From Falsiroseomonas tokyonensis (GTDB lineage: Bacteria; Pseudomonadota; Alphaproteobacteria; Acetobacterales; Acetobacteraceae): a DNA stretch of 64,000 nt. This document shows positions 20,443 through 33,153 of the stretch, in pieces. The stretch covers positions 682,118-746,117 of the forward strand of contig NZ_JAFNJS010000002.1 in NCBI RefSeq assembly GCF_019024325.1, written 5' to 3'. How positions within the stretch are numbered: the first letter of the stretch is position 1; each line of letters opens with the position of its first letter. The notes beneath the pieces were generated by a model, which saw only the letters and a program-made list of their open reading frames with translations, was not told the origin of the DNA and did no database searches. Both the position numbers and the translations under genes were made by a program.

Positions 20443-21450
20443 ATGGACGCTTTCCTCGCCACCCCCATCGGGGTGCTCGCGCTGACGGTCGCGCAGGCCA
20501 TGGCGCTGCTGGTGCCGCTGCTGATCGGCGTCGCCTACCTCACCTGGGCCGAGCGCAAGGTGCTGGCGGCGATGCAGATGCGAAAGGGGCCGAATGTCGT
20601 CGGGCCCTTCGGCATGCTGCAGCCCTTCGCCGACGCCATCAAGATGCTGATGAAGGAAACCATCATTCCTTCCGGCGCATCCCGCGTGCTGTTCATCATG
20701 GCACCGATGATCACCTTCATGCTGGCGATGCTGGCCTGGGCGGTCATCCCCGTGAATGATGGGTGGGCGATCGCCGATATCAATGTCGGCATCCTCTATC
20801 TCTTCGCGATCTCTTCGCTCGGCGTCTATGGAATCATCATCGCTGGCTGGGCTTCGAATTCGAAATACGCCTTCCTCGGCGCGCTGCGCTCGGCGGCGCA
20901 GATGGTCAGCTACGAAGTCTCCATGGGCTTCGTCATCGTCACGGTGCTGCTCTGCGTCGGCTCGCTGAACCTGTCGGAGATCGTGCGGGCGCAGGAGAAC
21001 CTGTGGTTCATCGTGCCGCTCTTCCCGATGTTCGTCATCATGTTCATCAGTGCCCTGGCCGAGACGAACCGCGCGCCCTTCGACCTGCCGGAAGGCGAGT
21101 CCGAGCTGGTGGCGGGCTTCTTCGTCGAATACTCGTCGATGTCCTTTGCGCTGTTCTTCCTCGGCGAATACGCGAACATGATCCTGATGAGCGCGCTCAT
21201 CACCATCCTGTTCCTCGGCGGCTGGTACGGGCCCTTCGGGCTGCTGCCGGCGCTCGGGCCGCTGTGGTTCGTGCTGAAGATCTGCTTCTGCCTCTTCGTT
21301 TTCGTCTGGGTGCGCGCGACCTTCCCGCGGTATCGCTACGACCAGCTCATGCGGCTCGGCTGGAAGGTCTTCCTGCCCTTCAGCCTGGTCTGGCTGGTCA
21401 TCACCGCCGCGGCGCTCAAGATCTTCGGCTGGCTGCCGGGAGGAGTTTGA
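20443..21450 (+). CDS. nuoH: NADH-quinone oxidoreductase subunit H
   Basis: A 335-residue membrane subunit with eight predicted helices linking the quinone cavity to the proton-pumping arm. Conserved segments are [18 protein letters not shown] and [20 protein letters not shown], whose acidic residues are essential in the family. Start at ATG 20443, 4 nt after nuoG. Confidence 0.98.
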
Positions 21451-31115: not shown

Positions 31116-31424
31116 ATGACCTGGTTCACCGGCGTGGTGGTCTATCTGCTGATCTGGTGGACCGCCCTGTTCATCGTGCTGCCCATCGGCACGCGGCCCG
31201 TGGATGTGGCGCCGGAGGATGGCGGCTGGCGCGGTGCGCCGGAAAAGCCGCTGCTGCTGCGCAAGCTGGCGGGCACCACGGTGCTGGCGGCGATTCTCTG
31301 GCTGGGCGTCTTCGCCATCATGGAAAGCGGCTGGGTTAGCTTCCGGGACGGCTGGTGGGCCTATACCGGCCCCGGCAGTTCGGCGGTCCTGCCGGGTCCC
31401 GCGCGGGGGCCTGCACAAAATTAA
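31116..31424 (+). CDS. Small two-helix membrane protein, DUF1467-like
   Basis: A 102-residue protein with hydrophobic helices at about residues 5-25 (VVVYLLIWWTALFIVLPIG) and 50-70. The N-terminal pattern WW-ALFIVLPIGTR and the following short polar loop fit the DUF1467 family, whose function is unknown. It is 7 nt after rnj and probably co-transcribed. A strong hairpin begins directly after its TAA. Confidence 0.75.
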   Translation: MTWFTGVVVYLLIWWTALFIVLPIGTRPVDVAPEDGGWRGAPEKPLLLRKLAGTTVLAAILWLGVFAIMESGWVSFRDGWWAYTGPGSSAVLPGPARGPAQN

Positions 31425-31456
31425 GGCGGCAAACCCGCCTCCCCGCGGGTGCCGCC
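31425..31456 (+). terminator. Strong hairpin at the end of the rnj unit
   Basis: GGCGGCA/TGCCGCC (7 bp) encloses AA and then CCCGC/GCGGG (5 bp). It begins at the base after the stop codon. No T-run follows, so it may be a rho-dependent or mRNA-stabilising end rather than an intrinsic terminator. Confidence 0.5.
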
Positions 31457-31645
31457 CCATAATCAGGCATATCAGTTTTGGAAGCCTGTTTTTGGGCTTC
31501 CGACGACGGCGTTTGCTGTTGTGCCGCCTTGGGTGCCGAGGCCAATCTAGGTTCCAGAGGGAGGTTGATCCTCCTTCTGCCGTGTGACTGGCGTTTCCTC
31601 CCTAAACTCGGGCCGTACCCTGACGGGTGCGGCCCTTCTTTTTTA
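31457..31645 (+). ncRNA. Candidate structured RNA (small RNA or proS leader), unassigned
   Basis: This stretch is distinctly richer in A and T than its surroundings. It starts with CATAAT at 31458, a possible -10, though no matching -35 is evident. Several local stems follow: GGAAGCC/GGCTTCC around a T-rich loop near 31480, GCCTTGG-GTG-CCGAGGC near 31530, and GGAGG-TTGAT-CCTCC near 31560. It ends in a strong intrinsic terminator. No open frame looks coding. If transcription starts near 31470 the product would be about 175 nt. I compared it mentally with 6S, SRP, tmRNA and RNase P signatures and found none. Confidence 0.35.
31610..31644 (+). terminator. Intrinsic terminator upstream of proS
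   Basis: An 11-bp stem GGGCCGTACCC/GGGTGCGGCCC (one G-T pair) with loop TGAC runs into TTCTTTTTT. It lies 185 nt after the DUF1467-like gene and about 205 nt before proS, so it must end a transcript that is not an annotated protein gene, or act as an attenuator. Confidence 0.88.
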
Positions 31646-31848
31646 CCCAGAGCCCGGGTGCTTGCAAGCACTATCTTAAGGGTCGAAGCATTTTTTTGCT
31701 CTTTCCTTACCCGAACGCTCGGGTGGACGTATTTTTATTGCTGCGGTGCAGCAGCCGTTGGAGGAAGTGGCAAAACGGCGCCCCTCCCTGGCGCCGGAGC
31801 GAGGCGGGCCCTACTTTGCCCCACCCGATCTCTTTGAGGAGCCGCGTC
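31646..31848. other. proS upstream region with palindromes
   Basis: Contains the 14-nt perfect palindrome GTGCTTGCAAGCAC at 31658-31671, the hairpin ACCCGA-ACGC-TCGGGT at 31709-31724, and T-rich runs near 31691 and 31730. A weak promoter candidate is TTACCC, 17 nt, TATTTT (about 31708-31736). GAGGAG at 31836-31841 is the proS ribosome site. No gene seen. Confidence 0.4.
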
Positions 31849-33153
31849 TTGCGCCTCTCCCGTGCCTTCCTGCCGACCCTGAAGGAAACCCCGGCCGAGG
31901 CGACCATCGCCTCGCACCGCCTCATGCTGCGCGCTGGGCTGGTGCGGCAGACCAGCGCCGGCATCTATGCCTGGCTGCCGCTCGGCTGGCGCGTGCTGCA
32001 GAAGATCGAGCAGATCGTGCGGGAGGAGCAGGACCGCGCCGGCGCGCAGGAAATCCTGATGCCGACCATCCAGTCCGCCGAGCTCTGGCGCCAGTCCGGC
32101 CGCTACGACGCCTATGGGCCGGAGATGCTGCGCCTGCGCGACCGGCACGACCGGGAGATGCTGTTCGGCCCGACCAACGAGGAAATGGTCACCGACATCT
32201 TCCGCGGCTTCGCCAAGAGCTACCGGGACCTGCCCCGGAATCTCTACCACATCCAGTGGAAGTTCCGGGACGAGGTGCGGCCGCGCTTCGGCGTGATGCG
32301 CGGGCGCGAATTCCTGATGAAGGATGCCTATTCCTTCGACCTGACGAAGGACGGCGCCCAGCACAGCTACCGCCAGATGTTCCTGGCCTATCTCCGCACC
32401 TTCGCCCGGATGGGGCTGAAGGCCGTGCCGATGCGCGCAGATACCGGGCCGATCGGCGGCAACCTGAGCCATGAATTCATCATCCTGGCGGAGACGGGTG
32501 AGTCCCAGGTCTTCGTCAGCCAGGACCTGCTCGACATGAACGCGCTGGCCGGCGCGCCCGATTACGGCGCGGACCTGGCGCCGGCCGTCGACGCCTGGAC
32601 CAGCCACTACGCGGCCACCGAGGAGATGCACGACCCCGCCGCCTGGGAACAGGTGCCGGAGGCCAAGCGCGTCTCGGCGCGCGGCATCGAGGTCGGCCAC
32701 ATCTTCTATTTCGGCACCAAGTATTCCGCGACCATGGGCCTGTCCGTGCAGGGGCCGGATGGCAAGCCGGTGGTGCCGGAGATGGGCAGCTACGGCATCG
32801 GCGTCTCCCGTCTGGTCGGCGCCACCATCGAGGCGAATCACGACGAGGCCGGAATAAAGTGGCCGGATGCCGTCGCGCCCTTCAAGGCGGTGGTGATCAA
32901 CCTGAAGCAGGGCGACACCGCCTGCGATGCGCTGAGCGAGCGCATGTACGCCGCCATCCCCGAGGCGCTGTATGACGACCGCACCGAGCGCGCCGGCCCG
33001 AAATTCGCCGATGCCGACCTGATGGGCCATCCCTGGCAGGTGGTGATCGGCCCGCGCGGCGCCGCCAACGGCGTGGTCGAGCTCAAGCGCCGCGCCACGG
33101 GGGAGAAGATGGAAGTCTCCCCCGAGGATGCGCTGGCGAAAATCCAGGGCTGA
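31849..33153 (+). CDS. proS: Prolyl-tRNA synthetase, short form without editing insertion
   Basis: A 434-residue class II synthetase that charges tRNA-Pro. Motif 1 region includes [19 protein letters not shown], motif 2 [16 protein letters not shown] and [14 protein letters not shown], motif 3 [14 protein letters not shown]. The large editing (INS) domain found between motifs 2 and 3 in E. coli is absent, as is common in alphaproteobacteria. The start is TTG 31849: it has GAGGAG 7 nt upstream and gives [18 protein letters not shown], the family N-terminus. No ATG fits. Confidence 0.94.

What the first reader, a model, noticed from the sequence alone, without database searches (positions are those of the whole stretch)
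31425..31848. AT-rich, highly structured stretch with a lone strong terminator between a DUF1467-like gene and proS
In a very GC-rich window this gap is visibly richer in A and T. It holds several hairpins, a 14-nt palindrome, T-runs, and an 11-bp intrinsic terminator that no protein gene uses. It could encode a small RNA of about 175 nt, or be a proS leader with an attenuator. I could not match it to 6S, SRP, tmRNA, RNase P or a known riboswitch.
Basis: partly seen in the sequence, partly recalled or inferred. Interest (0 to 1): 0.6.

Follow-up and report, generated by a model that had tools for sequence, protein, structure and literature searches.

The report
Known small RNA gene beside proS
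The AT-rich gap holds a gene for a small regulatory RNA of a known alphaproteobacterial family (αr8/MmgR/Sis), here an extra copy kept beside the gene proS, which probably turns down the making of nutrient-uptake proteins.

Summary
In detail: the gap is 60.1% GC against 69.2% for the window and carries an 11-bp terminator that serves no protein gene. But Rfam RF00519 (suhB/mmgR, αr8) matches 31572-31650 at 48.4 bits, cut-off 41, so the RNA belongs to a known family. Predicted transcript: about 91 nt, 31554-31644, with a covarying 5' stem, a small hairpin, the exposed αr8 10-mer UUUCCUCCCU and the terminator. The 175-nt size and the proS-attenuator idea are not supported. The genome has a second αr8 copy beside an FGase gene, the usual place. 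The proS-linked copy is a separate class: 95 of 117 named contigs with its 27-nt core have it between DUF1467 and proS. PhaR-type boxes are in 41 of 48 other αr8 promoters but 7 of 113 of this class; 78 of 105 carry such a box before proS. Five of nine exact 10-mer complements outside the two sRNA genes sit at ribosome-binding sites of TctC/Bug receptor genes, a testable target prediction. Transcription, Hfq binding and repression were not tested.

The parts
31116..31424 (+). DUF1467 gene, upstream neighbour
   Evidence: PF07330, E 3.1e-22
31480..31501 (.). Dyad GGAAGCC-N8-GGCTTCC, centred about -63 from the predicted start; role unknown
   Evidence: At most 1 mismatch and fixed distance to the 10-mer in 11 of 11 genus loci, 5 or more mismatches in 23 of 23 loci of other genera; one exact site in the genome
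31519..31548 (+). Predicted sRNA promoter: TTGTGC (31519-31524), 18 nt, CAATCT (31543-31548); inference
   Evidence: TTG and A...T columns conserved in the 34-locus alignment; the sigma-70 consensus scan found no promoter
31554..31644 (+). Predicted αr8 small RNA, about 91 nt (proS-linked class)
   Evidence: RF00519 at 31572-31650, 48.4 bits; fold z -5.5; covariation; start inferred
31556..31578 (+). 5' stem-loop, 9 pairs; its left arm lies outside the Rfam match
   Evidence: At least 7 of 9 pairs in 34 of 34 loci and 115 of 115 named contigs with enough sequence; 3 pairs with changes on both sides
31579..31592 (+). GCC-GUGUGACU-GGC hairpin
   Evidence: Nearly invariant, so no covariation evidence for it
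31594..31603 (+). Exposed 10-mer UUUCCUCCCU, the αr8 seed
   Evidence: Exact in 34 of 40 DUF1467 loci; unpaired in the fold; identical to the αR8 core in PMC12559287
31610..31644 (+). Intrinsic terminator and U tail
   Evidence: 4 of 11 stem pairs with changes on both sides
31738..31753 (.). PhaR-type box TTGCTGCGGTGCAGCA, 95 nt before the proS start codon
   Evidence: Only one other exact copy in the genome, upstream of a phasin gene; box core in 11 of 11 genus loci and 78 of 105 named contigs against 3.3 expected
31849..33153 (+). proS, downstream neighbour
   Evidence: PF00587 and PF03129

Best explanation
The gap encodes a trans-acting small RNA of the αr8 (suhB/MmgR/Sis) family, about 91 nt, with its own promoter and with the orphan terminator as its 3' end. 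Its exposed 10-mer UUUCCUCCCU pairs, probably with the help of Hfq, with G/A-rich ribosome-binding sites and blocks translation; the best predicted targets are mRNAs of TctC/Bug and other periplasmic substrate-binding proteins. It is a second, proS-linked sibling of the FGase-linked αr8 copy of the same genome; the two share the seed but not the promoter, since the FGase-linked copy has PhaR-type boxes and this one has none. Shown here: gene, structure, conservation, gene linkage, seed, promoter difference, target complementarity. Inferred: transcription and its start, Hfq binding, repression, and what PhaR does.
For: RF00519 above its gathering score. Three-helix fold with the seed unpaired, z -5.5; 98.8% of cells paired and 7 of 23 pairs with changes on both sides against 1.6 in shuffles, 0 of 500. 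Exact 10-mer in 34 of 40 DUF1467 loci; DUF1467-sRNA-proS order in 95 of 117 named contigs with the core. Second copy with FGase neighbour and PhaR-type boxes. Box in 41 of 48 other αr8 promoters, 0 of 9 and 7 of 113 of this class. Five of nine exact seed complements at TctC ribosome-binding sites, with a decoy test in support. SisA pairs with target leaders through the same 10-mer in Caulobacter (PMC12559287, passages and section 7).
Against: No expression data. The Rfam score is modest (48.4 against 56.7 bits for the other copy). The promoter scan found no sigma-70 consensus. The small hairpin does not vary, so it has no covariation support. Six of 40 DUF1467 loci lack the exact 10-mer. The target evidence rests on complementarity: genes other than TctC also show some excess at 8-9 nt, duplex energies did not discriminate, and only 4 of 10 mRNA-type sites read in the genus were TctC, one of them the own genome's. 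7 of 113 promoters of this class do have a box, more than the 1.2 expected.
Confidence: 0.85

Rival explanations
1. A proS leader with a transcription attenuator: the terminator is conditional and controls read-through into proS.
For: The terminator lies upstream of proS on the same strand.
Against: RF00519 match; the terminator ends about 205 nt before proS and a promoter-like stretch with a conserved box follows it; the leader 31740-31848 has no excess structure; the distance from sRNA to proS varies widely among relatives.
Confidence: 0.04
2. A longer RNA of about 175 nt, or the 3' UTR end of the rnj-DUF1467 mRNA, from which the αr8 part is processed.
For: The hairpin at 31480-31501 is conserved in the genus, and the scan shows no + strand terminator between DUF1467 and the sRNA.
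Against: Outside the genus the sequence upstream of the promoter-like columns is poorly conserved, while those columns and everything from the 5' stem on are conserved.
Confidence: 0.1
3. The RNA is an αr8 copy, but TctC receptors are not its targets: they simply tend to have GGAGGAAAC-like ribosome-binding sites.
For: Strong Shine-Dalgarno sequences overlap the seed complement; other genes show a smaller excess too (6 of 400 decoys as high at 8 nt).
Against: The decoy test keeps GGAGG and shuffles the flanks; at 8 nt TctC has 8 of 63 against 1.9, 1 of 400 decoys as high, without the segments that hold exact sites; 3 of 19 against 0.7, 12 of 400, in two contiguous blocks.
Confidence: 0.4

Closest known systems
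MmgR (sm8, SmelC689) of Sinorhizobium meliloti, RF00519 / αr8
   Same: Same Rfam family; short Hfq-dependent RNA of 77 nt (PMC8401924, passages); its promoter has a PhaR site bound in EMSA (PMC12542648, passages), as the other αr8 copy of this genome appears to have
   Different: MmgR lies between SMc04042 and SMc04043, not at proS (PMC2573895, passages); the copy described here has no PhaR-type box in its promoter
SisA-D of Caulobacter crescentus (αR8 siblings, sponged by CrfA)
   Same: Several siblings per genome with the same 10-mer, a weak hairpin before it, a terminator, and differing promoters; SisA lies by an FGase gene like the second copy here (PMC12559287, passages and section 7)
   Different: No CrfA-like sponge was identified here (not searched for beyond the 11 exact sites); reported targets are TonB-dependent receptors and other transporters, predicted ones here are TctC/Bug receptors; whether any Sis copy lies at proS was not checked
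smrC9 (sra32) of S. meliloti, in the SMc01933-proS gap
   Same: Also an sRNA in the gap next to proS (PMC2573895, passages)
   Different: Opposite strand to proS, about 165 nt, a different RNA; no family other than RF00519 reached its gathering score in this gap

Membership tests
αr8 / suhB / mmgR (RF00519) | Score above Rfam's gathering cut-off | tested here: met
   48.4 bits, cut-off 41, model positions 1-77 of 77
αr8 / suhB / mmgR (RF00519) | Single-stranded 10-mer UUUCCUCCCU | tested here: met
   Exact at 31594-31603, unpaired in the MFE and centroid structures
αr8 / suhB / mmgR (RF00519) | Weak hairpin upstream of the 10-mer and a Rho-independent terminator | tested here: met
   Hairpin 31579-31592, terminator 31610-31644
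αr8 / suhB / mmgR (RF00519) | Expressed as a short, Hfq-bound RNA | not testable with these tools
   No expression or binding data
αr8 / suhB / mmgR (RF00519) | Usual (not defining) place beside an FGase gene | tested here: not met
   This copy lies at DUF1467-proS; 0 of 9 copies of its class but 31 of 46 canonical copies have FGase within 1.5 kb
CcsR1 (RF02791, CCUCCUCCC motif RNA) | Score above Rfam's gathering cut-off | tested here: not met
   17.2 and 11.5 bits against 65.3, and elsewhere in the gap
proS leader attenuator | Terminator in the proS leader with alternative folds or a known leader family | tested here: not met
   No Rfam leader family at gathering scores; leader z +0.9
PhaR (AniA) binding site (box at 31738-31753) | YGCRNYGCR core, bound by PhaR | tested here: inconclusive
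   Core present, same 16-mer upstream of a phasin gene, phaR gene in the genome; binding not testable here

The most novel reading that the evidence does not exclude
In Acetobacteraceae the αr8 system has two arms with one seed: a canonical FGase-linked copy under the PHB-responsive regulator PhaR, and a proS-linked sibling freed of PhaR whose neighbour proS carries a PhaR-type box instead. Together they silence a large family of TctC/Bug nutrient receptors, giving this expanded and poorly understood family a common post-transcriptional switch tied to carbon storage.
Probability: 0.35. Interest if true: 0.6.

Novelty: new member of a known kind. Interest (0 to 1): 0.38.

Why it matters
It turns an unexplained AT-rich gap into a named regulatory RNA gene and offers a clean comparison of sibling sRNAs that share a seed but not a promoter. 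If the target prediction holds, it gives a handle on how bacteria with 150 or more TctC/Bug receptor genes keep them in check, and it would extend the PhaR-αr8 link from Sinorhizobium to Acetobacteraceae.

Tried and rejected
proS attenuator: not supported. CcsR1 and the other families: all below gathering. Self-occlusion of the seed by AGGGAGG in the 5' arm (31558-31564 with 31597-31603): only L031 and L033 of 34 loci have that arm, so not a conserved switch. RNAalifold on the 34-row alignment did not show the 5' stem, I think because rows are out of register there; I counted pairs on 11 rows in register, dropping 23 of 34, and checked the stem row by row, where 24 of 34 rows have 9 of 9 pairs against 24% of arm swaps. 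Duplex energies of target sites were uninformative. The dyad 31480-31501 as a regulon motif: one exact site in the genome. My gene caller found 1062 genes in 1.595 Mb and some starts are wrong (called genes recovered only 2 of the exact sites near a start), so searches are rough. An earlier count said 33 of 40; the right count is 34 of 40.

Literature searches (PMC open-licence library only). In these listings I saw no report of αr8 with TctC/Bug targets or of the proS-linked class. The survey of αr8 phylogeny (Lagares et al. 2016, seen only as a reference) was not read, so proS-linked copies may already be listed there. PMC5370414 is not held.

Full report
What is there. The gap 31425-31848 lies between a DUF1467 gene and proS. 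It is clearly lower in GC than the window (0.601 against 0.692) and holds one strong terminator at 31610-31635. Searching the window against Rfam gave four matches at gathering scores: three tRNAs and RF00519 (suhB/mmgR) at 31572-31650, 48.4 bits with a cut-off of 41 (repeated on the gap alone). So the terminator is the 3' end of an αr8 small RNA.

Anatomy. From the alignment of 34 relatives I place the start near 31554: TTGTGC and CAATCT, 18 nt apart, are followed by a 5' stem of 9 pairs, a GCC-GUGUGACU-GGC hairpin, the unpaired 10-mer UUUCCUCCCU and the terminator. The window's RNA folds so at -44.2 kcal/mol (z -5.5). On 11 rows in register 98.8% of cells pair and 7 of 23 pairs have changes on both sides against 1.6 in shuffles, 0 of 500 as high; slid versions reach 0 to 3. 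The left arm of the 5' stem lies outside the Rfam match, yet at least 7 of 9 pairs form in 34 of 34 loci and in 115 of 115 public contigs with enough sequence. The start is an inference; the sigma-70 scan found nothing.

Conservation and place. Of 40 fetched loci with a DUF1467 gene (11 of the genus, 29 of other genera of the family), 34 have the exact 10-mer 149-217 nt after the end of the DUF1467 match; 6 do not. Nine further DUF1467 matches were not fetched. In 95 of 117 both DUF1467 and proS are in place; some misses are contig ends, while 4 had room but no proS match and 6 had room but no DUF1467 match. Two contigs of genus-mates have the lengths of named Falsiroseomonas records, so the genus is probably Falsiroseomonas. 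Over 289 genomes of the class a model of this RNA scores 114 bits here and 58.8 at best elsewhere; 132 of 289 have some match. Only four genomes of the family appear in the listed rows (137 rows without a match were not listed), so this does not measure its spread inside the family. In two other families an αr8 match lies beside a DUF1467 gene.

Two classes in one genome. RF00519 occurs twice in this genome, in 15 of 15 genomes of the genus and in 98 of 120 sampled genomes of the family, with stricter filters; the 20 listed misses are genomes of 1.9-3.7 Mb. The other copy (L001) has an FGase gene (PF05013) 96 nt downstream, on the opposite strand, the usual αR8 place according to PMC12559287 (section 7). 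Of 59 fetched RF00519 copies, 57 had a readable core: 9 of the proS class, 46 canonical and 2 of a third kind. A TGCRNYGCA box, matching the core of the S. meliloti PhaR motif (PMC12542648, passages), is in the promoter region of 41 of the 48 others (2.0 expected) and 0 of 9 of this class; in the public contigs it is in 7 of 113 of this class (1.2 expected). Between this sRNA and proS such a box occurs in 78 of 105 contigs (3.3 expected), at a median of 118 nt before the proS match; 51 of 78 lie within 85-145 nt. The window's box TTGCTGCGGTGCAGCA has one other exact copy in the genome, upstream of a phasin gene (PF09361) with a second box nearby. The genome has a phaR gene (PF07879). I infer that proS, rather than this sRNA, is under PhaR here; binding is untested and the reason is unknown.

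Likely work. In Caulobacter the shared 10-mer pairs with a target leader, and CrfA sponges the siblings (PMC12559287). In this genome the exact complement AGGGAGGAAA occurs 11 times. Two are the sRNA genes. Of the other nine, five begin 15-19 nt before the start codon of genes confirmed as TctC receptors (PF03401), two overlap the start codon of other genes, and two precede only doubtful ORFs. TctC matches number at least 150 (150 of 169 candidates were scored), and TctC genes were 19 of 531 called genes in two contiguous 400-kb blocks, so five of nine is far above chance. Of 86 genus-wide sites of the 11-mer AGGGAGGAAAC, 30 were fetched and 29 read: 13 are antisense to αr8 genes of the two main classes, 6 by eye antisense to a third αr8-like class, and 10 are others, of which 4 are TctC, 2 other solute-binding proteins, 2 a fumarase-type gene (one tested) and 2 start-codon overlaps; two of the ten are this genome's own sites again. 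A decoy test that keeps GGAGG and shuffles the flanks supports a real preference: with the segments holding exact sites removed, 8 of 63 TctC genes against a decoy mean of 1.9 at 8 nt, 1 of 400 decoys as high; in the two contiguous blocks, 3 of 19 against 0.7, 12 of 400. Other genes show a weaker excess (20 of 912 against 11.1, 6 of 400).

Verdict. A known family, a distinct sibling locus, and a testable wiring. Literature seen: search listings; passages of PMC12559287, PMC8401924, PMC12542648, PMC2573895, PMC2873474 and PMC6520949; and one whole section (section 7 of PMC12559287).

Noticed in passing
window 31480-31501: Dyad GGAAGCC-N8-GGCTTCC at a fixed distance upstream of the sRNA in 11 of 11 genus loci and absent (5 or more mismatches) in 23 of 23 loci of other genera; possible activator site or RNA element.
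   Followed up: partly
window 31738-31753: PhaR-type box before proS, common across the family; why a prolyl-tRNA synthetase gene should carry one is unexplained.
   Followed up: partly
L027, L030, L320, L329, L332, L336, L340, L343: A third αr8-like class with the core GTTCCTGGACGTTTCCTCCCT in some genomes of the genus.
   Followed up: no
own genome G000: At least 150 TctC/Bug receptor genes (PF03401) in a 6.16-Mb genome.
   Followed up: partly
L107 near 1440-1520: Two PhaR-type boxes upstream of a phasin gene, one of them the same 16-mer as before proS.
   Followed up: partly
window around 20633-21056: The lowest-GC 424-bp stretch of the window (0.585), lower than the reported gap.
   Followed up: no
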